From NCBI GenBank assembly GCA_017502085.1, contig JAFVVQ010000034.1, positions 1-57,534 on the forward strand: a stretch of 57,534 nt of DNA. Reading direction: 5' to 3'. Positions 1,977 through 12,007 of the stretch are shown here, in pieces. Below the pieces are notes generated by a model. That model ran no database searches. It had not been told where the DNA came from and saw nothing but the letters and a program-made list of their open reading frames with translations. Both the position numbers and the translations under genes were made by a program. Positions within the stretch are counted from its first letter, which is position 1, and each line of letters starts with the position of its first letter. Origin of the DNA: Clostridia bacterium (lineage in GTDB: Bacteria; Bacillota; Clostridia; Oscillospirales; Acutalibacteraceae).

Positions 1977-1991
1977 TCGGAGGTGAATCAA

Positions 1992-2585
1992 ATGGAAGCT
2001 TTTAACGGAATTCAATTTGACGGTCGTTTTCATACCGAAGTGGTGCAGGGTACATATAAACTGTTTACAGAAGTTAAGTTTACAGCAACTCTCATTATTG
2101 AGATTGCGGATCCTGATAAGTTCAATACTATGTTCGGCGGTCAGCTTCCCATTGATATTATCAAGACAGATGCATCCCGTGTTGCTGAAATGACCTTCAC
2201 AAAAATGTTTGCGGAAGGCTGCTCTGTTGATGAGCTGAAATATAAGGCAGACACACAGGCTGATTTGATTCTGCAGGACTTCGCAATTGCAGGCTGGGAA
2301 GCAAGAGCAGGCATCAGAGCAACCGCAATAAATGATGTGTTTATTGAAATTGACCCCAAAACGGAAAAATTGCTTTCGACTGTTGCGACTATGAACATTG
2401 CTTCTGCTCCTGTTTCTGCACCTGCACCGCAGGGTAATGCTGTCTGGCAATGTGTCTGCGGCAATAACAATTCGGGCAAGTTCTGCACCGAATGCGGAAC
2501 CAAAAAGCCTGAAGATTGGGTATGCTCCTGCGGAAACAGAAACAAAGGCAAGTTCTGCACGGAATGCGGAAAACCTAAAAGTTAA
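1992..2585 (+). CDS. SPFH-like protein with double C-terminal zinc ribbon (YdjI-like)
   Basis: 197 residues. ATG 1992 is chosen because SD GGAGG (1979-1983) overlaps the in-frame GTG at 1983 and sits 8 bases before the ATG. Residues 1-130 resemble the C-terminal part of an SPFH/virion-core-type domain (VQGTYKLFTEVKFTATLIIEI, then alternating helices and AINDVFIEIDP). After an Ala/Pro linker come two zinc ribbons, each with the pattern CxCGNxNxGKFCTECG, giving eight cysteines for two metal sites. In Bacillus the YdjI protein has this layout and works with TPM protein YdjH and PspA. Here it follows the TPM and DUF6935-like genes, so a role in membrane-stress scaffolding is likely but inferred. 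It is shorter than full YdjI-like proteins. Confidence 0.75.
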   Translation: MEAFNGIQFDGRFHTEVVQGTYKLFTEVKFTATLIIEIADPDKFNTMFGGQLPIDIIKTDASRVAEMTFTKMFAEGCSVDELKYKADTQADLILQDFAIAGWEARAGIRATAINDVFIEIDPKTEKLLSTVATMNIASAPVSAPAPQGNAVWQCVCGNNNSGKFCTECGTKKPEDWVCSCGNRNKGKFCTECGKPKS

Positions 2586-2594
2586 GGTGATTTT

Positions 2595-4493
2595 ATGAAA
2601 AAAACTATTTCGATTTTTCTTGCAATGCTTATGATAATGCCGTTTGCAGTACCCTTTGCGTCTGCGGCGGATGCAATCGGAACAATAGCCGTAACAATTG
2701 ATACTGCCGACCTTGGCGGCAAATCGGTTGACAGCTATGCAGATTACGTTACTATCGGAACCGAAGGCGTGATTTTTGAGGAATCAAACGGTCCTGCCGT
2801 TGAAGCCTTCAACAAAACAACCGAAAGCTATGATTCCGAATTTGAAGGCGGTAATTATTATACTTTTACTGTTAAGCTTACCGAAGCACCTTATTATGCG
2901 TTGCCCGCTGCGGGATCATTTGCAGAGGTTGAGGTAAACGGCAGTAAATATGCCGCATTGGTTCAGGAAAAAAACACAGTCTCCGGTACGATTTCCTATA
3001 TTTTGTTTGAAATTGAGCTTTATGTCGGCGACCCGATGAAAAACCTCAAGGCGATTGATTTCCATGTTCCCGCACCCGTTGCAGGTGCCGTTCCTGCAGA
3101 CCTTTCTCAGGTAACTGCAGATAATATGGGCGTAATCATTGTCGGCATTGAATGGTTCCCCGAAGATCCCGTTTTTGTTGAGGGAACGCAGTATTCGTTC
3201 CAACTTGCTCTTGAAACGGCAGAGGGATTTACCTTTGATAAAAACATTTATCTCAGCCACGATATGGCTGATGCAATTAAAATCGGCAGCGGCAAGAATG
3301 AACTTAAAATGACGTATACGTTCCCGATTCTTGAAGCAGAAAAAATTATCGGTGCTGATTTTACAATTCCTGCACCCGTAACAGGTGAGACTCCTGCGGC
3401 AACAGCTGAAATTGTTTGCGATAATCCCAATATCACCGTGGCATCGGTTGACTGGGATCCCGTTGATGATCCCTATAAACTGGGCATTGAATACACCGCC
3501 ATAATCAGCATCGAAGCAAATTCGTACTATAAGTTTGACAGTGCATCCGCTTTTACTGTTAACGGTCAGAATGCGGTTAAAATCGGTAGCGGAGCAGAGG
3601 AACTCAAAGTTTGTTATACATTCCCGGCAACCGAGAAAATCAAGATATCCGAGCTGAACGCAACAGTTATTGCACCCGTTGCAGGTGAAGCACCCTCAAA
3701 TGTTATAACAACAACGGGAACAGGTTATACAGTTTCTGTTCTTAAGTGGCTCGTTTCAGGTAATCCTACAGAAACAATTACCGAATTCAAGCAAGGCAAA
3801 AATTATGAAATTCAGGTTAAATTCGTACCCGATAACGGCTATGTTTTTGCTGATGATGTAACAGCAAAAATCAATGATAAAAATGCATTCCTTTGCATGG
3901 AAAATTCTGTTACGGGCGAAAAAACATTTGTAATTGTTTTTACTCTTCCTCTCCCCGAATATAACATCAGCGTAACAAACGGCATAGCTTCGGCTTCAAA
4001 GGCTGTTGCAGGCACAACCGTAACGCTTACAGCCGATGCCGCACCTGCAGGCAAGGTGTTTGACAAGTGGATTGTAACAGGTGCAACCGTTGCTGATGCA
4101 ACAAGCGCATCAACAACCTTCACAATGCCCGAAAATGATGTAACTGCAGAGGCAACGTATAAGGATAAAACATATAATGTTTCAGTTACAAACGGCAAAG
4201 CATCAGCTTCAACTGCGGTTATGGGCGGCAGCATAACACTTACCGCAAATCAGATTGACGGCAAGGTTTTCAGCCGTTGGGAAGTCAGCGGAGCAGCCGC
4301 TTCCGATAAGAATGCAAAAGAAACAAGCGTAACCGTCGGCACATCCGACGTAACAGCCGAAGCGATTTACGAGGATTGCCCCTGCAAGTGCCACAAGGGC
4401 GGTATAGCGGGCTTCTTCTATAAGATAGTTCTTTTCTTCCAGAAGCTTTTCGGCAACAATAAAATCTGCGTAGGCTGCGGCGCAAAACACTGA
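2595..4493 (+). CDS. Secreted multi-repeat surface protein with C-terminal Cys/Phe-rich module
   Basis: 632 residues. Residues 1-24 are a signal peptide (ends ASA-A). About 30-150 is an unassigned beta-rich domain. About 150-455 holds three divergent repeats of roughly 100 residues, each opening with a variant of PAPVAGxxP and containing KIGSGxxELKxxYTFP. About 456-594 holds two divergent InlB-B-type repeats (PF18998-like: NISVTNGIASASKAVAG, then W.VTGA, then FTMPENDVTAEATY). Residues 595-632 form the module CPCKCHKGG, a Phe-rich helix, then CVGCGAKH. Role: probably an extracellular adhesive or structural protein; the C-terminal module may retain it at the cell surface (inference). It lies 9 bases after the SPFH gene, with SD AAGGTGAT, and ends at its own terminator. 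Confidence 0.85.
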   Translation: MKKTISIFLAMLMIMPFAVPFASAADAIGTIAVTIDTADLGGKSVDSYADYVTIGTEGVIFEESNGPAVEAFNKTTESYDSEFEGGNYYTFTVKLTEAPYYALPAAGSFAEVEVNGSKYAALVQEKNTVSGTISYILFEIELYVGDPMKNLKAIDFHVPAPVAGAVPADLSQVTADNMGVIIVGIEWFPEDPVFVEGTQYSFQLALETAEGFTFDKNIYLSHDMADAIKIGSGKNELKMTYTFPILEAEKIIGADFTIPAPVTGETPAATAEIVCDNPNITVASVDWDPVDDPYKLGIEYTAIISIEANSYYKFDSASAFTVNGQNAVKIGSGAEELKVCYTFPATEKIKISELNATVIAPVAGEAPSNVITTTGTGYTVSVLKWLVSGNPTETITEFKQGKNYEIQVKFVPDNGYVFADDVTAKINDKNAFLCMENSVTGEKTFVIVFTLPLPEYNISVTNGIASASKAVAGTTVTLTADAAPAGKVFDKWIVTGATVADATSASTTFTMPENDVTAEATYKDKTYNVSVTNGKASASTAVMGGSITLTANQIDGKVFSRWEVSGAAASDKNAKETSVTVGTSDVTAEAIYEDCPCKCHKGGIAGFFYKIVLFFQKLFGNNKICVGCGAKH

Positions 4494-4584
4494 TTAAATT
4501 TTTAAGGCGGCGGAGAAATCCGCCGTCTTTTTTAAAAAAAGTTCAATTTTTTTTTAAAGTTTGCACTAAAGTACAATGCGCAAA
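4374..4584 (+). repeat. Copy A of module-terminator-operator repeat
   Basis: Positions 4374-4462 are identical over 89 bases to 6133-6221, and 4485-4557 is essentially identical to 6241-6309. The repeat covers the codons of the C-terminal Cys/Phe-rich module, the terminator hairpin and the operator of the next gene. A diverged third copy runs from 9780 to 9973. The coding sequences upstream of the repeat are much less alike, so the 3' ends have been homogenised or duplicated recently. Confidence 0.9.
4506..4532 (+). terminator. Intrinsic terminator
   Basis: The 9-bp stem GGCGGCGGA / TCCGCCGTC (one G-T wobble) with a GAAA tetraloop is followed by six T. It ends the unit that includes the secreted protein at 2595. 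The same hairpin recurs at 6262 and, with changes, at 9915. Confidence 0.9.
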
Positions 4585-4604
4585 CAGAAAAAAGCTGATA
4601 AAAT
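4560..4604 (+). promoter_or_regulatory. Operator and promoter, copy 1 of the shared secretome element
   Basis: TTTGCAC (4560-4566), spacer TAAAGTACAAT and GCGCAAA (4578-4584) form an imperfect inverted repeat. The -10 box TAAAAT lies at 4599-4604. No good -35 hexamer sits 17 bases upstream of it, so the element looks like an activator site replacing the -35. The distance from the first T of the element to the -10 is 39 bases here and at 6316, and 40 at 9949. It serves the gene at 4672. Confidence 0.7.
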
Positions 4605-4671
4605 ACTATGGTAAATATGTGCAGAATGTAATTTGCACAAAATTATAAAATAACCGAAAGGAGAAATTTCA

Positions 4672-6249
4672 ATGAAATTTTTCAAGAAGTCCCTCGCAGT
4701 GCTCCTTTGCATGGTTACCGTTTTTGCGACAATGGCAATCGGTTTCACTGCATCGGCAGCAATGCCTAACCCCGTAACAGAGGTTTATGTTAACAATGTT
4801 AAACTCACAAACGGCAAGTATCTTGCTGTCGGCAGCAAAACTGCAACAACAACAAAACCTTCGGGCGGCTATGCTTATTTCAACACAAACAAGCTTTACC
4901 TCCACAACTACACATTCTCGCTCAACGACAGTAAGTACACAGACGGCTACGGAAAAAAATACAGAATTTACGCTGATAACGGTGTTCTTGAAATATATTT
5001 CAGCGGTGTAAACGGTCTTGAGTGCAACGATTCAACAGGCTATACCACATACCACGATATTTATTGTTACAGAGGTAAGGTTGAACTCTACGGCAACCAG
5101 GATGCTGTTATCTCGTTATCCGGTGAAAGCTATTCTGTTTCTGCAACTGAAGGTATCTGGGCTGAGTGCGGCACCTATAATCTTCAAAACGGTTTCGAGG
5201 CTTCTGCACCTCAGGTGACCTCCGAATCAAACATTTCTTTGATAGACGGTGTTTTCAACGTTAGCGGTATCGGTCACAAAGCGAATAACAGAATCACTGT
5301 TCATACAGGTATTCATAATTTCAACTGCCCGACCGATTATGCGGTTGCTTCTCAGTCAGGCGACGTTCTTATTATGGGCGGCACAATCAATTCGGTAAGT
5401 GGCGGCTTCGCTACATTGTCAAATAGCGGTAAGGTCAGAATCGTCGGCGGCAGAACAAATCTCACAGCAAACTCCATCGCTACCCACGGTATCTTTACCC
5501 AAAAATTAGAGATGACTGAAGGTTATCTCAAGGTAACATCGGGCAACAAAGCTCTTTACACTGCTTTTGAAAATATCCCTGCCAATATTAAAGTCACTGC
5601 ATCAACCAATCAGAACGGCTCGGGTGCCGTCACTTATAATGCTTCAAATAACAAAAATTATAAGTATTTTGAAGCAAAGAGCACAAACACCTATGACGTT
5701 ACAATCAACGACGGTTTCAAAGAAACAACAACAAAGGCATATTATAACGAATCAATCGACGCTGAACCCGCAAATATCGCAGGCAAAAAGTTTACAAAAT
5801 GGACATTGAAAGGTGTGCACCTTTCCTCCCGCAGACAGGAGACCGATACATATATCATATTCACAATGCCCAAGAATGCTGTTACCGTAACAGCAAACCT
5901 TGAAACAGACACAACCACACCCGTAAACGGCAAGACCATCACCGTTATCAACGGCACGGCAAACGTTTCTAAGGCTGCCACAGGTGCGATTGTAACAATC
6001 AAGGCTGACGAGCTTGAAGGCAAGTTTTTCAGTCATTGGGAAGTAACCAACGCAACTGTTGAAGATGAAGATTCTGCTGAAACCTATATTACAGTGGGTA
6101 ACGGCAACGTAACCGCAGAAGCAGTTTATGAAGATTGCCCCTGCAAGTGCCACAAGGGCGGTATAGCGGGCTTCTTCTATAAGATAGTTCTTTTCTTCCA
6201 GAAGCTTTTCGGCAACAATAAGGTTTGCGTTTGCGGTGCTAAACACTGA
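4672..6249 (+). CDS. Secreted beta-rich protein with InlB-type repeat and C-terminal Cys/Phe-rich module
   Basis: 525 residues. Start ATG 4672 follows SD AAAGGAG. Residues 1-30 form a signal peptide (ends TASA-A). The central region (about 35-345) is rich in short beta strands, Gly, Asn and Thr, with a right-handed beta-helix look (repeats such as NSGKVRIVGGRTNLT and GDVLIMGGTINSVSG), but I cannot assign a family. About 346-488 carries two divergent InlB-B-type repeats (FTMPKNAVTVTANLE and ITVINGTANVSKAATG...). Residues 489-525 are the module CPCKCHKGG, Phe-rich helix, CVCGAKH. Probable role: extracellular surface protein whose tail is shared with the genes at 2595 and 9105. It is transcribed alone, from the shared operator to the terminator at 6262. 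Confidence 0.85.
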   Translation: MKFFKKSLAVLLCMVTVFATMAIGFTASAAMPNPVTEVYVNNVKLTNGKYLAVGSKTATTTKPSGGYAYFNTNKLYLHNYTFSLNDSKYTDGYGKKYRIYADNGVLEIYFSGVNGLECNDSTGYTTYHDIYCYRGKVELYGNQDAVISLSGESYSVSATEGIWAECGTYNLQNGFEASAPQVTSESNISLIDGVFNVSGIGHKANNRITVHTGIHNFNCPTDYAVASQSGDVLIMGGTINSVSGGFATLSNSGKVRIVGGRTNLTANSIATHGIFTQKLEMTEGYLKVTSGNKALYTAFENIPANIKVTASTNQNGSGAVTYNASNNKNYKYFEAKSTNTYDVTINDGFKETTTKAYYNESIDAEPANIAGKKFTKWTLKGVHLSSRRQETDTYIIFTMPKNAVTVTANLETDTTTPVNGKTITVINGTANVSKAATGAIVTIKADELEGKFFSHWEVTNATVEDEDSAETYITVGNGNVTAEAVYEDCPCKCHKGGIAGFFYKIVLFFQKLFGNNKVCVCGAKH

Positions 6250-6340
6250 TTAAATTTTTAAGGCGGCGGAGAAATCCGCCGTCTTTTTTAAAAAAAGTTC
6301 AATTTTTTTGAAAAGTTTGCACTAAAGTACGATGTGCAGA
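6133..6340 (+). repeat. Copy B of module-terminator-operator repeat
   Basis: Second copy of the repeat at 4374-4584: 89 identical bases over the module codons, the same terminator hairpin and the same operator. The only clear differences are in the last codons (KICVGC against KVCVC) and a few bases of the operator arm. Confidence 0.9.
6262..6289 (+). terminator. Intrinsic terminator
   Basis: Same GGCGGCGGA / TCCGCCGTC stem and GAAA loop as at 4506, followed by TTTTTT. It ends the gene at 4672. Confidence 0.9.
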
Positions 6341-6360
6341 CCGAAAAAAGATGCTAAAAT
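6316..6360 (+). promoter_or_regulatory. Operator and promoter, copy 2 of the shared secretome element
   Basis: TTTGCAC (6316-6322), spacer TAAAGTACGAT and GTGCAGA (6334-6340), then -10 TAAAAT at 6355-6360. Transcription should begin near 6367, which rules out the in-frame GTG at 6367 as the start of the next gene and supports ATG 6412. Confidence 0.7.
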
Positions 6361-6411
6361 TTCATTGTGGCAGTGTGTCTGCAAAAATTTATTCAAAGGA
6401 GAATGATTTTT

Positions 6412-7416
6412 ATGAAAAAGTTTTTAGCAATTATTTTGGCTCTTGCAATGCTTCTTTCGTTTGCTGCTTGTGGCGGCAAAGAAACCCCTGAAACAACTAC
6501 TCAACCTGCTGAAACGACAACCGCAGCTCCCGAATTTGACGAAACAACAGTAACAGACGGAAAATTCAACAAGCTCACAGTTAAGACGCCTATTGACGAG
6601 TTTACGTTTAATGAAGCCAACACCGAAGGTAATTTCCTTGCACAAACAAACATCGTTAAATGCGGTACTCTTGAAAGTGAAGAAGTTAACATCGGCCTTG
6701 CTTTTGCCGTTACTCATGCGGCTTATAAATCCGTTCACGACTACGTTACAAAGTGCTTCAGCAAAAACACAATCTTTGAGGAAGGCAAGCTCGGCGAATA
6801 TACAACCTATGTTCGTCAGAACGTAACTACTGCAATGCAGATTATCGTTTGCTTTAACGACTTTGAATTTGCAATGCTTGAGTTCAAGCTTCCTGACGGC
6901 TCAAAGAAGGAAGATTATGCGGCGCTTCATGAAAGCGATCTGTTTAAGGCTGTTTATGATAACCTTGTAATCGAAGCAGGTGCAGCAGAAGAAAACCCCG
7001 TTCCCGAAAACAACGGCACAGACGAACCCGAAGCTCCTGCAAATAGTCCCATCACGTCGGAAAAAGGTTACGTAACGGTTACTCCTGCCGGCGGATTTAT
7101 CTATGACGAGGCAGGTTCAACAAACGGAACAATTACTTTCAAGAACACAGCTCTCGGCGCAAATGCCGCTGTTTATGTTTATGACGAGCAGAGCATGGAA
7201 TACGAAGTTCAGAAAAAGCAGTTCGGCTATGCATATCCCAACAAGGAATACACATCGGTAACAATCGGTGCAAACACATATGATGCTATCGAATCCAACA
7301 CAGGTATCACATATCTTGTGGCAAATACCTCAACCGGTAACGCTATGTACGTTATGGTCTGGAATTGCACGGTTGAAGATGCAACACCCCTTATTGAAAC
7401 AATCGTAATCAAATAA
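6412..7416 (+). CDS. Lipoprotein of unknown function
   Basis: 334 residues from ATG 6412. SD AAAGGAG (6395-6401) lies 10 bases upstream; the earlier in-frame GTG 6367 would sit at the transcription start. The signal peptide has a lipobox FAAC with the lipidated Cys at residue 20. A Thr/Pro/Glu-rich linker follows (PETTTQPAETTTAAP). One domain (about 45-195) and, after a second Pro/Glu-rich linker, another (about 220-334) are beta-rich; I do not recognise either. It should be anchored to the outer face of the membrane. It lies under the same regulatory element as its secreted neighbours but lacks the Cys/Phe-rich tail, consistent with having a lipid anchor instead. Confidence 0.8.
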   Translation: MKKFLAIILALAMLLSFAACGGKETPETTTQPAETTTAAPEFDETTVTDGKFNKLTVKTPIDEFTFNEANTEGNFLAQTNIVKCGTLESEEVNIGLAFAVTHAAYKSVHDYVTKCFSKNTIFEEGKLGEYTTYVRQNVTTAMQIIVCFNDFEFAMLEFKLPDGSKKEDYAALHESDLFKAVYDNLVIEAGAAEENPVPENNGTDEPEAPANSPITSEKGYVTVTPAGGFIYDEAGSTNGTITFKNTALGANAAVYVYDEQSMEYEVQKKQFGYAYPNKEYTSVTIGANTYDAIESNTGITYLVANTSTGNAMYVMVWNCTVEDATPLIETIVIK

Positions 7417-7427
7417 AACTATTATAC

Positions 7428-7459
7428 GGAGTGGCCGTATCGCTCGGTCACTCCTTTTT
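7428..7459 (+). terminator. Intrinsic terminator or attenuator between two lipoprotein genes
   Basis: GGAGTGGCCG (7428-7437) pairs with CGGTCACTCC (7445-7454), with a loop TATCGCT, followed by five T. The next ATG is only 25 bases further on and no promoter is seen between them, so this is probably a leaky terminator lowering expression of the downstream pair. Confidence 0.8.
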
Positions 7460-7483
7460 CAGATTATTTACACAGGTGATATT

Positions 7484-9088
7484 ATGAAAAAAATCGTATC
7501 TTTTATTTTAGTTTTTTCTCTGATTTTCTGCTTTGCTTCGTGTGTAAAGGATAATCCCGAAAAACCCGTAAATGAATCAACAACAAATGTAGAAGAAACA
7601 AGCGATAACACATTGCCCGAAAAGAAAAATGCCGTGGAGTTTCTTTCTGTTTATACAGAAAAAGCCTATGAATATGAAACATATACTGAAGAGTATTACT
7701 ATCTGACAGAGGTAAACTATCAGAAATTGCATCTTTCAGAAGAAAATGAAAAAGAATATCCCCGCCTTGCAAAAGCTCTTGATTCTCTTAATGCTGATAA
7801 AACAGAGTTCTATAAGGATAAGGCAAAAGAGCTTGATGAGTATGCATCGGAACAGCTTGATTATTATTATGAAGACGGCGAACAGCCTGCGGTTTACACC
7901 GCAAAAAACGAATACTTTCTTCAAAGAGCAGATAACGTTGTTCTGAGTATCAGAAGCGATTCCGATGAGTTTTCGGGCGGTGCACATCCCAACTACGGCT
8001 ACGGCGGATATAACTTCGATACCGTAACGGGTAAAGAACTTGTTATAACCGATGTTATGACCGACATTTCATCTCTTCCTGCAATTCTTTCGGAAAAGAT
8101 AAATTCAAAAGATGAATTTGCAGACGGATTTTTCGGTTCACTTGAAGAGACACTTTCGGAATACACGGCAGAACAGTTTAACTGGACAATCGGTTATAAG
8201 GGTGTAACTTTTTATTTCAGTCCCTATGAAATCGCGTCCTTTGCCGCAGGTCTTATTACCGCAACGGTTAATTTTGACGAATATCCCGAGCTTTTCAATA
8301 AGAAATATACGGTTGCCCCCGAATCCTATGCCGTAACACTTTCCGAATGGAGCGACGTTGAGTTTGATAAGAATCCGTCTGACGGTAAAAAAGATACTAT
8401 CAGCGTCGGTCTTTCGTATTACACGGAAGAAGGCTCATATAAAGATATCAGTCTTAATCTCAACGGTAATGAATTCACGGTTGAAGATGTTTATGCTTTC
8501 AGTGCCGAATATTATCTTGTCAATTCAAAAGGCAGATGTTTTGTTTATCTTGTGCCTCACGGCTTTAACGATTACACAAACATTCTTGTTTATGACCTGA
8601 ACGGCAATGAGATAAAAGAAGCAGGTGAACTTGACAGAACTGCTTTCGGCAGTCTGGTCTGGGAGGATGAAAATGAAGATACCCATCAGGCGAAGCTTCT
8701 TTTCAATAACCCTGCACAGTTTGTTCTTGAAACAACCTTTGATATTCTCGGAACATACGCTGCCGATAAAACCTACACCGTGAATTCCGAAACAGGTATG
8801 CCCGAATCAACCGATGAATTCTATACCATAGACAAAAGCTTCCCGTTCGTTCTTAAATCAAAAGAAGCTTTCAACGTTAAAATCCTTCCCGATATGAAAA
8901 CCGAACTTGTTAAAGCAGGCTCGGAATTCACACTTCTGCGTACAGACGGCAAAACCTTTGTTGATGCAAAGCTCGGTGACGGCAGAGAATGCAGAATTTA
9001 TGTTGAGAGAAACAGAACGGATTATCAGCTCTGTATCAACGGAATACCCGAATATGAGCTTTTTGAAGAGATTTATTACGCAGGATAA
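7484..9088 (+). CDS. Lipoprotein with DUF4163/DUF3298 (RsiV-like) domain
   Basis: 534 residues. SD AGGTGAT precedes ATG 7484. The lipobox FASC puts the lipidated Cys at residue 20. Residues about 45-265 match the DUF4163-DUF3298 pair: YYLTEVNYQKL, then SGGAHPNYGYGGYNFD, then TGKELVITDVM. This pair occurs in RsiV anti-sigma factors and in the PdaC family, where it lies outside the membrane. The remaining 270 residues are beta-rich and unassigned. No cytoplasmic sigma-binding segment or peptidoglycan deacetylase domain is present, so it is neither RsiV nor PdaC. It is co-transcribed with the gene at 9105 (16-base gap). Confidence 0.85.
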   Translation: MKKIVSFILVFSLIFCFASCVKDNPEKPVNESTTNVEETSDNTLPEKKNAVEFLSVYTEKAYEYETYTEEYYYLTEVNYQKLHLSEENEKEYPRLAKALDSLNADKTEFYKDKAKELDEYASEQLDYYYEDGEQPAVYTAKNEYFLQRADNVVLSIRSDSDEFSGGAHPNYGYGGYNFDTVTGKELVITDVMTDISSLPAILSEKINSKDEFADGFFGSLEETLSEYTAEQFNWTIGYKGVTFYFSPYEIASFAAGLITATVNFDEYPELFNKKYTVAPESYAVTLSEWSDVEFDKNPSDGKKDTISVGLSYYTEEGSYKDISLNLNGNEFTVEDVYAFSAEYYLVNSKGRCFVYLVPHGFNDYTNILVYDLNGNEIKEAGELDRTAFGSLVWEDENEDTHQAKLLFNNPAQFVLETTFDILGTYAADKTYTVNSETGMPESTDEFYTIDKSFPFVLKSKEAFNVKILPDMKTELVKAGSEFTLLRTDGKTFVDAKLGDGRECRIYVERNRTDYQLCINGIPEYELFEEIYYAG

Positions 9089-9104
9089 AAGGAGATAATT
9101 TAAA

Positions 9105-9896
9105 ATGATTAAAAAAATAACGGCAATTATGCTCGCTCTTATTACTGCTTTTGCAATGATGAGCATTTCAATGACTTCGGCATCAGCCGCAACAAAGGTT
9201 ATTGAAATCAGCAAGTTACCCCCAATCTATTACGGAGAAACCCTCAAAAATTCAAACCTTACCCCTTGCTTTCCATCGCTTGACTACAATCAGGTGCCTT
9301 ATTATTCGGAAATCAAGTCAACGCATGTTCCTGATTGCGACGGCGAGGTAGCTGACCCGCAAAAGGAATATTATGTGCTCACAACATTCTATATCGGCGG
9401 CTATGAGCTTCCTGCAGCCGGTGAATTCAAGGTTGTATATGACGGCAAAGAAATACTCTGTTATGATTTTAATTCTTATAAGCCCAGTGACAGTGCATAT
9501 TTTCTTTATAAAAATGGCAGTAACGGCAAAGCAATGTGTATTATCAGAATCAAACTCGGTGGTTCTGCAACTCTCGGCACCGATATCAGCGTTATAAACG
9601 GAAAAGCATCTGCTTCAAGTTCGGTTATCGGCAATGCTGTAACGATCACGGCAGATCAGATTGACGATAAGATTTTTTATTGTTGGAATATCACAGGCGC
9701 AACCCTCGAAGATTATTATGATTCCGAAACAATGTTCACAATGGGAGTTTTCAATGTTTCTGCAGAAGCAGTTTACAAAGATTGTGAATGCAAATGCCAT
9801 AAAGGCGGAATTGCAGGCTTCTTCTATAAGATTGTTCTTTTCTTCCAGAAGCTCTTCGGAAATAATCTTGTCTGCGAATGCGGAGCAGAGCATTAA
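9105..9896 (+). CDS. Small secreted protein with InlB-type repeat and C-terminal Cys/Phe-rich module
   Basis: 263 residues; SD AAAGGAG precedes ATG 9105. Signal peptide 1-28 (ends SASA-A). Residues about 35-150 form an unassigned beta-rich domain. Residues about 155-226 are one divergent InlB-B-type repeat (ISVINGKASASSSVIG, then YCWNITGATLEDYYDSE). Residues 227-263 are the module CECKCHKGG, Phe-rich helix, CECGAEH. The protein helix is the same as in the genes at 2595 and 4672, while many codons differ, so the amino-acid sequence is under selection. It ends at a third copy of the shared terminator. Confidence 0.85.
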   Translation: MIKKITAIMLALITAFAMMSISMTSASAATKVIEISKLPPIYYGETLKNSNLTPCFPSLDYNQVPYYSEIKSTHVPDCDGEVADPQKEYYVLTTFYIGGYELPAAGEFKVVYDGKEILCYDFNSYKPSDSAYFLYKNGSNGKAMCIIRIKLGGSATLGTDISVINGKASASSSVIGNAVTITADQIDDKIFYCWNITGATLEDYYDSETMFTMGVFNVSAEAVYKDCECKCHKGGIAGFFYKIVLFFQKLFGNNLVCECGAEH

Positions 9897-9973
9897 AAAT
9901 TGAATGTTTTATCGGACGGCAGAGAAATCTGCCGTCTTTTTTTGAAAATTTGCACTAAAGTACGATGTACAAA
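9780..9973 (+). repeat. Copy C (diverged) of module-terminator-operator repeat
   Basis: Same arrangement as copies A and B: module codons, hairpin GACGGCAGA/TCTGCCGTC with GAAA loop, then the TTTGCACTAAAGTAC operator. The coding part has many silent changes from copies A and B, so it is older or was not homogenised. Confidence 0.8.
9915..9943 (+). terminator. Intrinsic terminator
   Basis: GACGGCAGA (9915-9923), GAAA loop, TCTGCCGTC (9928-9936), followed by seven T. It ends the two-gene unit 7484-9896. The stem is changed relative to 4506 with compensating bases, so the hairpin itself is conserved. Confidence 0.9.
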
Positions 9974-9994
9974 ACGGCAGGAAGGTGATATAAT
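9949..9994 (+). promoter_or_regulatory. Operator and promoter, copy 3 of the shared secretome element
   Basis: TTTGCAC (9949-9955), spacer TAAAGTACGAT and GTACAAA (9967-9973), then a consensus -10 TATAAT at 9989-9994. It serves the CAP-domain gene at 10040. Confidence 0.7.
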
Positions 9995-10039
9995 ATAATG
10001 GAATTTCAGCGTGATGCTATATCCTGAAAGGAGTTCTCT

Positions 10040-12007
10040 ATGAAAATGTTCAAAAAAATCGTTGCGGTTGCGCTTTGCCTGATTACCGCTCTTGCAGTGC
10101 TTCCGCTTTCAACCACGGCTTCAGCTTACGGCGTTGAATCGCCTACACCTCAGCAGATCGTTTCAAGATTCAATCAGATTAAATTCGATCTGGACCATCA
10201 GTCGAAGTTTGCCGAGGCATATTCTCTCAAAGCTCCCTATGCGGCAGGTGAGCTTGATGCAGAAACACAGACTCAGGCTCTTAATGCGGTTAACTTCTGC
10301 AGATATGTTGCAGGCCTGCCTGATGATGTTGAGCTTAAATCAGACCTTAGTGAGGCTTCGCAGGCAGGTGCAATGCTCAATGCAGCAAACGGTGTTCTTA
10401 CCCATAATCCGAGCCGTCCGTCGGGAATTGACAACGCTCTTTATAATCTCGGTAAAAAGGGCTGCAGCAGCTCGAATATTGCATATAACCACAACAGCGT
10501 AACCCGTTCGGTTGTATGCTTTTTGGAAGATACGGATGAGAGCAACATTTCTGCACTTGGCCACAGACGCTGGCTTCTCAACCCCTCAATGAAGTATATC
10601 GGCGTAGGTAATGTTGGAGCATATACATCGGTTTATGTTTTTGACTCTTCACGCTCGGGCTCATATACGGGCGATTATGTATGCTGGCCCGCAAAGAATA
10701 TGCCGTATGAGCTTTACGGCACTATGGAGCAGTATGCTTTTTCGGTTTCTCTCGGCAACGCATACGATACTCCCAGCCGTTCAAAGGTCAAGGTTACGGT
10801 TTCGTCGCAGAAGCTCGGTAAATCATGGACACTTGATTCTTCCTGCAACGACTATGAAAAATATATGAATGTCAATAACGATAATTACGGCACGCAGAAG
10901 TGTATCATTTTCAATGTTGGTGAGATGTTCCCCGAAAACGATACCGTCAGCGTAACGATCAGCGGCATTTCAAAGTCGGGAAGCAGCACAAGCTTGTCAT
11001 ATCAGGTTAAGTTCTTCAACATGACGGATTATATTTCCTTCCAGGGTGCTGACACTTGGTGCTATCATCCTTCCCGTACTTATTCAAATCCTCTCGTTGT
11101 GGAAGCAGATTGTGAAAACGAGGGCTATACCCTCGGCAAGTGTACAGATTGCAACAAGTATACAAAATTCAATTTTGTTGCCGCAAAGGGTCATTCATGG
11201 CAGACAAATTCCAACGGTGATAAGTATTGCTCGGAATGTAATTCGGGCGCAATTCAGATTTCACACAGCAATATTGATATTCTGAATAAAGGAACCGCAA
11301 CCGTTAAAGGCTCGCTTGCAAACGGCAGCTCCGCAACATTCATTTATTCCTCTCTCAATCCGCTGGTTGCTTCCGTCAGCTCAAGCGGTGTTATAACCGC
11401 AAACAGTGTCGGCTCAACAACGATCAGGGTGTCCGCATTGGGCATTGAAGGCTATGCGGAATGCAGGGTTAATGTGCTTCCCCGTGAATTCACCGTAACC
11501 TGGAGCGTTAACGGAGAGGTGACAACGCAGAAGGTGAAAGAGGGTGCGCCGATCGTCCCGAATGCTGACACGGATATTCCCGGCTATAAGTTTGTCAGTT
11601 GGTCTCCGTTGGTGCCTTCGGTTATGCCTGCGTCAAATCTCAATTTCACAGCCGTTCTTGTCAAGCAGACTGACATATCCATAATCAACAATCCCGGCAC
11701 GAAAACCGTAAATTACGGTGAAAAGTTAACGCTTAAAGCAAAACTCATAAACGAGCCGGAGGGCGCAAAGGTTTACTGGTATGTCAACGGTGCATTCAAA
11801 ACAGAGGGCGAATCCATAACTCTGCAGTTTATGAGCGATACGGAAATAACGGCAAAAGCAGTAAAATCCGACGGCACGCCGATAAGCAATTATGACGGCG
11901 CAGAGGTTACCGAATCCGAAACAGTAAAGGTCAAAGCAGGATTCTTCCAGAAACTCATTTATTTCTTTAAAAATCTTTTCGGTTTAATCAAAGCTGTTGA
12001 ACAGTAA
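10040..12007 (+). CDS. Secreted CAP (SCP-like) protein with BIG2-type Ig domain and cysteine-free terminal Phe helix
   Basis: 655 residues; SD AAAGGAG precedes ATG 10040. Signal peptide 1-29 (ends ASA-Y). Residues about 70-240 are a CAP domain (SQAGAMLNAANG, HNPSRPSG, and ALGHRRWLLNPSMKYIGVG, which holds the HRRWLLNP signature). About 350-405 is a small Cys-rich knuckle region (CENEGYTLGKCTDC, then KYCSEC). About 410-480 is a bacterial Ig-like group 2 domain. About 485-545 is an InlB/Flg_new-type repeat (FVSWSPLVPSVMPASNLNFTA), and a last Ig-like domain follows. The C-terminus has AGFFQKLIYFFKNLFG, matching the Phe helix of the modules upstream at 11 of 16 positions but without flanking cysteines. 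Extracellular. It is controlled by the shared operator. Confidence 0.9.
   Translation: MKMFKKIVAVALCLITALAVLPLSTTASAYGVESPTPQQIVSRFNQIKFDLDHQSKFAEAYSLKAPYAAGELDAETQTQALNAVNFCRYVAGLPDDVELKSDLSEASQAGAMLNAANGVLTHNPSRPSGIDNALYNLGKKGCSSSNIAYNHNSVTRSVVCFLEDTDESNISALGHRRWLLNPSMKYIGVGNVGAYTSVYVFDSSRSGSYTGDYVCWPAKNMPYELYGTMEQYAFSVSLGNAYDTPSRSKVKVTVSSQKLGKSWTLDSSCNDYEKYMNVNNDNYGTQKCIIFNVGEMFPENDTVSVTISGISKSGSSTSLSYQVKFFNMTDYISFQGADTWCYHPSRTYSNPLVVEADCENEGYTLGKCTDCNKYTKFNFVAAKGHSWQTNSNGDKYCSECNSGAIQISHSNIDILNKGTATVKGSLANGSSATFIYSSLNPLVASVSSSGVITANSVGSTTIRVSALGIEGYAECRVNVLPREFTVTWSVNGEVTTQKVKEGAPIVPNADTDIPGYKFVSWSPLVPSVMPASNLNFTAVLVKQTDISIINNPGTKTVNYGEKLTLKAKLINEPEGAKVYWYVNGAFKTEGESITLQFMSDTEITAKAVKSDGTPISNYDGAEVTESETVKVKAGFFQKLIYFFKNLFGLIKAVEQ

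What the first reader, a model, noticed from the sequence alone, without database searches (positions are those of the whole stretch)
4377..12004. A family of secreted proteins sharing a C-terminal Cys/Phe-rich module
Three consecutive secreted proteins (genes at 2595, 4672, 9105) end in the same 37-38 residues: a CxCxCHKGG knuckle, a 19-residue Phe-rich amphipathic helix with two Lys, and a CxCG..H knuckle. Upstream domains differ. None has an LPxTG signal, lipobox or surface-layer repeat, while the neighbouring lipoproteins lack the module. So the module may itself be a surface-retention signal: two Cys/His knuckles bracketing a membrane-binding helix. It could bind metal, be processed, or insert in the envelope. 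A terminal module linked to unrelated ectodomains is how sorting signals usually look.
Basis: partly seen in the sequence, partly recalled or inferred. Interest (0 to 1): 0.8.

Follow-up and report, generated by a model that had tools for sequence, protein, structure and literature searches.

The report
C-terminal surface-retention helix in Clostridia
Many otherwise unrelated exported proteins of one family of gut Clostridia end in the same short oily, positively charged helix, often capped at both ends by cysteine/histidine clusters, which looks like a built-in anchor that keeps them on the outside of the cell membrane.

Summary
The three tails exist and are nearly identical. Corrections: the three window proteins also share a Flg_new_2-like domain just before the tail, and a fourth window protein (10040-12007) ends in the same helix without cysteines. 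The Cys/His form ("class A") occurs in 23 of 300 genomes and 9 of 135 genera sampled in the same family, up to 22 matches per genome; of 299 genomes across the phylum only the own genome matched. Profile matches end proteins in 116 of 119 read and 45 of 47. Tail genes: signal-peptide-like 120 of 128, lipobox 0 of 120, further membrane segment 2 of 120; other genes 249 of 750, 34 of 249, 75 of 249. Ectodomains are unrelated. Best explanation: an in-plane membrane anchor working like the C-terminal helix of penicillin-binding protein 5; the knuckles are an optional, perhaps metal-binding cap. Amphipathicity is clear for the Cys-free form (29 of 34) but weak for class A without selection (2 of 19; 14 of 43). 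No processing enzyme was found beside the tails. Membrane binding and metal are untested.

The parts
2595..4493 (+). Protein A, 632 aa: signal peptide, Flg_new_2 repeats, class A tail
4374..4490 (+). Class A tail of protein A (39 aa, second knuckle CxxC)
4173..4379 (+). Flg_new_2-like domain directly before the tail of A, shared with B and C (bounds approximate)
4672..6249 (+). Protein B, 525 aa: signal peptide, unassigned region, Flg_new_2, class A tail
5926..6114 (+). Flg_new_2-like domain directly before the tail of B (bounds approximate)
6133..6246 (+). Class A tail of protein B (38 aa); first 89 nt identical to A
9105..9896 (+). Protein C, 263 aa: signal peptide, unassigned domain, Flg_new_2-like domain below cut-off, class A tail
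9573..9761 (+). Flg_new_2-like domain directly before the tail of C (bounds approximate)
9780..9893 (+). Class A tail of protein C (38 aa)
10040..12007 (+). Protein D, 655 aa: signal peptide, CAP domain, Big_2/Ig-like domains, class B (Cys-free) helix at the end
11936..12004 (+). Class B C-terminal helix AGFFQKLIYFFKNLFGLIKAVEQ
6412..7416 (+). Neighbouring lipoprotein without the tail (contrast)
7484..9088 (+). Neighbouring lipoprotein (DUF3298; PdaC just below cut-off) without the tail (contrast)

Best explanation
The tail is a portable C-terminal retention module. After export through Sec, a cationic Phe-rich helix of about 16-20 residues lies in or obliquely to the plane of the outer leaflet of the cytoplasmic membrane, aromatic and aliphatic side down and Lys/Arg/Asn/Gln towards the lipid head groups. 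It so keeps the ectodomain on the cell without lipidation, a membrane-spanning segment or a sortase. In class A tails two Cys/His knuckles (C-x-[CH]-x-C-H before the helix, C-x(1,2)-C-x3-H after it) cap the helix at a nearly fixed distance and probably bind a metal such as zinc. In class B the same kind of helix follows an Ig-like domain without knuckles. Shown: sequence, C-terminal position, link to signal peptides, avoidance of lipobox and membrane-span proteins, varied ectodomains, restriction to one family in the samples, and clear amphipathicity of class B. Inferred: membrane binding, orientation, metal, absence of processing.
For: C-terminal in 116 of 119 matches read of the 124 outside the own genome, 33 of 33, 45 of 47. 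Signal-peptide-like 120 of 128 tail genes against 249 of 750 others; lipobox 0 of 120 against 34 of 249; further membrane segment 2 of 120 against 75 of 249. Unrelated ectodomains. Not membrane-spanning by hydropathy: 1 of 97 class A and 0 of 48 class B reach 1.6. Class B moment beats 95% of shuffles in 29 of 34 profile-found helices. Net positive charge, mean +2.1 to +3.0. AlphaFold2 gives a helix in class A (pLDDT about 77-80) and in class B at low confidence (53-60). Class A and B profiles find each other's helix. One class B helix is internal in a secreted protein. Precedent: PBP5 of E. coli is held on the outer face of the cytoplasmic membrane by its C-terminal amphipathic helix (PMC2909392, passages). 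Two S11 proteins of the same genus end in helices of similar style (L192, L195).
Against: No membrane-binding data. Class A amphipathicity is weak where helices were not chosen by my pattern: 2 of 19 and 14 of 43 beat 95% of shuffles; the 31 of 39 used a pattern that demands polar positions and is biased. The near-fixed knuckle spacing (24-25 residues in 85 of 91) and invariant Cys/His suggest a defined fold or binding partner beyond simple lipid binding. The second knuckle has low model confidence. Signal-peptide, lipobox and membrane-segment rules are crude and orthologues are counted more than once.
Confidence: 0.55

Rival explanations
1. The tail is a processed sorting signal, like LPxTG, PEP-CTERM or MYXO-CTERM: an unknown membrane enzyme recognises the Cys motif, cuts at or near it and joins the protein to a lipid or the wall.
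For: C-terminal position, signal peptides, varied ectodomains and many copies per genome are what such signals look like; invariant Cys recalls MYXO-CTERM (PMC11980579, passages).
Against: The helix is not membrane-spanning by hydropathy and no basic end follows it; instead there is a second conserved Cys/His knuckle, in 34 of 34 aligned tails. A Cys-free class exists, and one of its helices is internal. No gene family recurs beside the tails except a TetR-like regulator. Sortase is nearly general in these genomes (38 of 41 and 22 of 22), and three drafts without a detected sortase still have 11, 6 and 1 matches (63-76% complete). An enzyme encoded elsewhere was not looked for beyond sortase.
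Confidence: 0.17
2. The tail is a docking or oligomerisation module: metal-stabilised knuckles and an exposed Phe-rich face bind a partner protein or another tail, as dockerins bind cohesins.
For: Near-fixed spacing, invariant Cys/His, carriers rich in leucine-rich repeats and Ig-like or Flg_new_2 domains, and the weak amphipathicity of class A.
Against: No conserved partner gene beside the tails; the Cys-free class works on similar proteins with only the helix; nothing in the PDB matches the class A profile. No genome-wide partner search was made.
Confidence: 0.18
3. The similarity is only recent gene duplication within this locus and has no function of its own.
For: A and B share 89 identical nt at the tail and all three share the preceding Flg_new_2-like domain.
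Against: Elsewhere the tail sits on unrelated domains in several genera with Cys/His invariant.
Confidence: 0.03

Closest known systems
C-terminal amphipathic membrane anchor of E. coli PBP5 (DacA; Peptidase_S11)
   Same: Exported protein held on the outer face of the cytoplasmic membrane by a short C-terminal helix (PMC2909392, passages); S11 proteins L192 and L195 of the same genus end in helices of similar style
   Different: There it belongs to one enzyme family; here it is a portable tail on unrelated proteins, often with Cys/His knuckles. Common descent is not shown.
MYXO-CTERM and other tripartite C-terminal sorting signals
   Same: C-terminal, on signal-peptide proteins with varied ectodomains, many copies per genome, invariant Cys before a hydrophobic helix
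   Different: Helix not membrane-spanning by hydropathy, no basic end, a second Cys/His knuckle follows, Cys-free class exists, no enzyme found (description of MYXO-CTERM from passages of PMC11980579)
LPxTG / sortase system
   Same: C-terminal surface retention in Gram-positive bacteria
   Different: No LPxTG signal: ten LPxTG-like strings in 97 class A tails lie 43-63 residues before the end, in Cys-rich repeats or just before the first knuckle
NCBIfam NF058595 'lipo-invert putative C-terminal anchoring domain'
   Same: A putative C-terminal anchoring domain, by its description
   Different: No tail listed it at E 1; its only match here was the N-terminus of the lipoprotein at 6412, below cut-off
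Phenol-soluble modulin epsilon (NCBIfam NF033428)
   Same: Weak similarity of 16 of 30 class B tails, best E 0.0024, and 2 of 34 class A tails; recalled to be a membrane-active amphipathic peptide
   Different: Free small peptide against a domain of large exported proteins; similarity may be composition only

Membership tests
LPxTG / sortase substrates | LPxTG-type motif followed by a membrane-spanning helix and a basic end | tested here: not met
   10 of 97 class A and 0 of 48 class B have an LPxTG-like string in the last 80 residues; all ten lie 43-63 residues before the end, followed by Cys-rich sequence; 1 of 97 and 0 of 48 tails reach membrane-span hydropathy 1.6
Tripartite Cys sorting signals (MYXO-CTERM type) | Invariant Cys motif | tested here: met
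   Class A only: C, C, H before and C, C, H after the helix invariant in 34 of 34 and 19 of 19; absent in class B
Tripartite Cys sorting signals (MYXO-CTERM type) | Membrane-spanning helix after the motif | tested here: not met
   1 of 97 class A and 0 of 48 class B reach 1.6 over 19 residues
Tripartite Cys sorting signals (MYXO-CTERM type) | Basic cytoplasmic end | tested here: not met
   In 82 of 91 distinct class A tails nothing or one residue follows the last His; the one residue is mostly Tyr or Trp
Tripartite Cys sorting signals (MYXO-CTERM type) | Dedicated processing enzyme | tested here: inconclusive
   No recurrent enzyme gene beside 43 tail-bearing stretches; genome-wide only sortase was searched
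Lipoproteins | Lipobox at the signal peptide | tested here: not met
   0 of 120 signal-peptide-like tail genes against 34 of 249 other genes, by a simple pattern
In-plane C-terminal helix anchors (PBP5-like) | Short C-terminal helix on an exported protein | tested here: met
   helix predicted
In-plane C-terminal helix anchors (PBP5-like) | Amphipathic helix | tested here: inconclusive
   Class B met (29 of 34); class A weak without selection (2 of 19; 14 of 43)
In-plane C-terminal helix anchors (PBP5-like) | Helix needed for membrane attachment | not testable with these tools
   needs fractionation or liposome binding
Peptidase_S11 (PBP5 family itself) | S11 catalytic domain | tested here: not met
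   No S11 match in the window proteins or the 19 further class A proteins scanned
Zinc-binding domain | Conserved Cys/His ligands that bind metal | tested here: inconclusive
   Cys/His conserved; metal itself not testable; best Pfam zinc match is ZPR1 at E 0.054 in 2 of 34

The most novel reading that the evidence does not exclude
A family of Clostridia uses an enzyme-free, Cys/His-capped, perhaps metal-stapled membrane helix as a general tag for holding secreted proteins on the cell, beside lipoproteins and sortase substrates, with a Cys-free helix as its substitute in sister genera: a new class of surface-anchoring signal.
Probability: 0.38. Interest if true: 0.78.

Novelty: new variant of a known kind. 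Interest (0 to 1): 0.58.

Why it matters
Exported proteins of these mostly uncultured gut Clostridia that lack a lipobox or LPxTG signal would be counted as free secreted proteins. If the tail is an anchor, a simple sequence rule would reclassify up to 22-25 proteins per genome as cell-attached, among them enzymes and leucine-rich-repeat proteins. It would be a case of a monotopic helix used as a portable display tag, and a short domain for holding proteins on anaerobes.

Tried and rejected
Family libraries: no clear match for class A in NCBIfam (best E 0.027), Pfam (best E 0.016) or the PDB (none at E 5); class B tails were run against NCBIfam only (best E 0.0024); against Pfam only as part of protein D.

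Literature: (listings with abstract starts), none describing this tail; with motif strings returned one unrelated paper, none. The library lacks most subscription papers.

Weak matches: G058 and L328 have a stop inside the match; L037 ends a 65-residue frame and is doubtful. In the class sample three genomes besides the own one gave partial matches in frames of 41, 92 and 27 residues (L090-L092, read): unconvincing, unresolved. In one search G627 has a stop inside; G432 was not readable from its locus; G542 (L156) ends a 387-residue frame two residues after a short helix and could be a distant relative. G809, G852 and G870 are class A tails by their best locus. One search picked the longer of two strands and showed the wrong one for L044, L045 and L090-L092; one search replaces it. 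Amphipathicity used a pattern that itself demands polar positions, so its 31 of 39 and 31 of 41 are biased; searches are the fairer figures. One search was circular and is not used. A spurious row (L110 +, 105 aa) stays in the counts (77 of 85) and was dropped.

Heme binding (CxCH, Cx3CH) was set aside without a test. The models were too weak at the second knuckle to say whether the knuckles meet, so no fold search was made. First looks in genome searches score a capped number of candidates, so per-genome counts are lower bounds and absences are not absolute.
Full report
WHAT IS THERE. The window (57,534 bases, contig C35 of a 2.63 Mb draft genome) holds three exported proteins at 2595-4493, 4672-6249 and 9105-9896 that end in the same 38-39 residue tail: a Cys/His knuckle (C-x-C-K-C-H), Gly-Gly, a Phe-rich helix with two Lys, and a second knuckle (C-x(1,2)-C-G-A-x-H) at the very end. 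A fourth protein, 10040-12007, with a CAP domain, ends in the same helix without Cys. I call the Cys/His form class A and the Cys-free form class B. The three class A proteins also share a Flg_new_2-like domain just before the tail, so within this locus the shared unit is about 105 residues; the independence of tail and ectodomain has to be shown elsewhere.

HOW WIDE IT IS. One tail as query gave 11 matches in the own genome: the three window tails, two on C7, a diverged one on C36, one on a protein of C29 with 5'-nucleotidase domains, and four Cys-free helices, window protein D among them. Of 36 same-genus genomes 31 had a match at E 0.01, mostly class B. A pattern scan of genomes of 84,980 species gave 33 loci, all deposited as unnamed Clostridia, Clostridiales or Oscillospiraceae; 26 of 33 titles name a ruminant gut site. 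With a profile that includes the C-x-H-x-C-H variant, 23 of 300 genomes sampled from the same family, in 9 of 135 genera, have class A tails, up to 22, 16 and 15 matches per genome. Of 299 genomes across the phylum only the own genome matched. An earlier class A profile gave 2 of 394 in the order (own genome and one same-family genome with class B helices) and 4 of 391 in the class, three of them short partial matches. The class B profile gave 4 of 291 in the class, the own genome and three weak ones, and 12 of 155 family genomes, three of which are class A tails by their best locus, leaving 9 in six genera, with 25 matches in one genome, G031; G031 had no class A match. A and B overlap in the window's genus and in genus g36, and each also occurs in genera where the other was not seen in these samples. 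That is what two versions of one device would look like, but it is a reading of two samples, not a test.

POSITION AND COMPANY. Of the 124 matches outside the own genome I read 119 (60, 59): 116 end within 13 residues of the stop. One is internal; two have a stop inside the match. The 33 loci are all terminal, as are 45 of 47 matches in stretches from other genera (one of the other two runs off its stretch, one is degenerate). The internal case (L202 2873-3967) is a protein with a signal-peptide-like start in which a class B helix is followed by a CAP-like domain (CAP-like by eye). Tail genes have signal-peptide-like starts in 120 of 128 against 249 of 750 other genes of the same stretches; lipobox 0 of 120 against 34 of 249; a further membrane-like segment in 2 of 120 against 75 of 249 (simple rules of my own, orthologues included). 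A separate control gave 43 of 112 signal-peptide-like. Nineteen hand-picked further class A proteins have, by Pfam: LRR_5 (nine), DUF6273 (two, one of them with Flg_new_2 and Big_2), 5'-nucleotidase, GDSL lipase, DUF4832/DUF4874, BNR_2 below cut-off, and none in four.

THE HELIX. Both classes share a core of the type F-F-x-K-[IL]-[IV]-x-F-F-x-[KN]-L-F-G, and each class's profile finds the other. On profile-found helices not chosen by my pattern, class B is clearly amphipathic (mean moment 0.51; 29 of 34 beat 95% of their shuffles), class A only weakly (0.37; 2 of 19), and class A tails mostly from other genera lie between (0.46; 14 of 43). The pattern-based figures (31 of 39 and 31 of 41) are biased upwards. 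Class A is the more hydrophobic, yet below the usual membrane-span threshold (1 of 97; class B 0 of 48); mean charge is +2.1 to +3.0. AlphaFold2 predicts the helix with moderate confidence in class A (77-80) and low confidence in class B (53-60); the second knuckle is low (52-67). Of 91 distinct class A tails the first His and next Cys are separated by 24 or 25 residues in 85; the variable ligand is Cys in 49 and His in 42; Tyr or Trp follows the last His in 59 (its pattern requires the other Cys/His).

MECHANISM. The anatomy fits a monotopic membrane anchor: exported protein, short cationic C-terminal helix, no other anchor. The precedent is PBP5 of E. coli, whose C-terminal amphipathic helix binds the outer face of the cytoplasmic membrane, is described as oblique, and is needed for localisation (PMC2909392, passages; in-plane anchors as a class, PMC1564421, passages). 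Of 30 S11 loci of the same genus read, two (L192, L195) end in helices of similar style; others end in shorter hydrophobic segments or membrane spans, and a few were read in a wrong frame. The more hydrophobic class A helix may sit deeper or obliquely, with the knuckles holding its ends; this is inference. A processed signal is less likely: a second conserved knuckle follows the helix, the helix is not membrane-spanning by hydropathy, a Cys-free class exists, one helix is internal, and no enzyme gene recurs beside the tails. In the neighbour test (43 tail-bearing and 12 control stretches) the only cluster in four or more genomes was a TetR-like regulator (ten genomes, by eye). Sortases are nearly universal here (38 of 41; 22 of 22) and so do not discriminate; three drafts without a detected sortase (63-76% complete) still have 11, 6 and 1 matches. 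A docking module remains possible, the more so for class A.

EXCHANGE. The tails of window proteins A and B share 89 identical nucleotides from the first codon. In genome G006 the orthologue of protein C has 90-93% identical ectodomain DNA to five other orthologues, but its last 39 nt are only 56-59% identical to theirs, while its last 42 nt equal those of another tail gene of G006. Tails thus seem to move between genes as cassettes.

NOVELTY. No clear match to the class A tail in Pfam, NCBIfam or the PDB; class B tails match phenol-soluble modulin epsilon weakly (16 of 30, best E 0.0024). Five searches of open papers listed no description. I rate it a new variant of a known kind: a monotopic helix anchor turned into a portable, often knuckle-capped tag.

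Noticed in passing
L014 730-1396 and related loci in nine other genomes: A TetR-like regulator gene (by eye) recurs near tail genes in ten genomes, in none of the 12 control stretches; in the own genome it lies on the stretch of the tail-bearing 5'-nucleotidase gene.
   Followed up: partly
L202 2873-3967: Protein with signal-peptide-like start, Ig-like part and class B helix in the middle, followed by a CAP-like domain: the internal case of the helix.
   Followed up: yes
L202 4145-4747 (-): Small exported protein with Cys/His repeats ending in another amphipathic-looking helix (DWGAVLSSIGSLFKALFAGVKIDL), not found by the profiles.
   Followed up: no
window 1983-2585: Protein without evident signal peptide ending in two Cys-rich repeats (CVCGNNNSGKFCTECG..., CSCGNRNKGKFCTECG...), no Pfam match.
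   Followed up: no
upstream of class A tails, e.g. L106, L109, L110, L247, L250: Cys-rich repeats of the type IPATGH..DGKCDKC mimic an LPxTG motif; ten such strings in 97 class A proteins.
   Followed up: yes
window 4209-4490 and 5752-6246 (-): Long antisense open frames across the tails (EKLLEEKNYLIEEA...), which can mislead frame picking.
   Followed up: partly
L261 73-2053: A degenerate class A tail (CKCICHSILSPIVVRIYNILYKIFGVEYVC) 17 residues before the stop.
   Followed up: no
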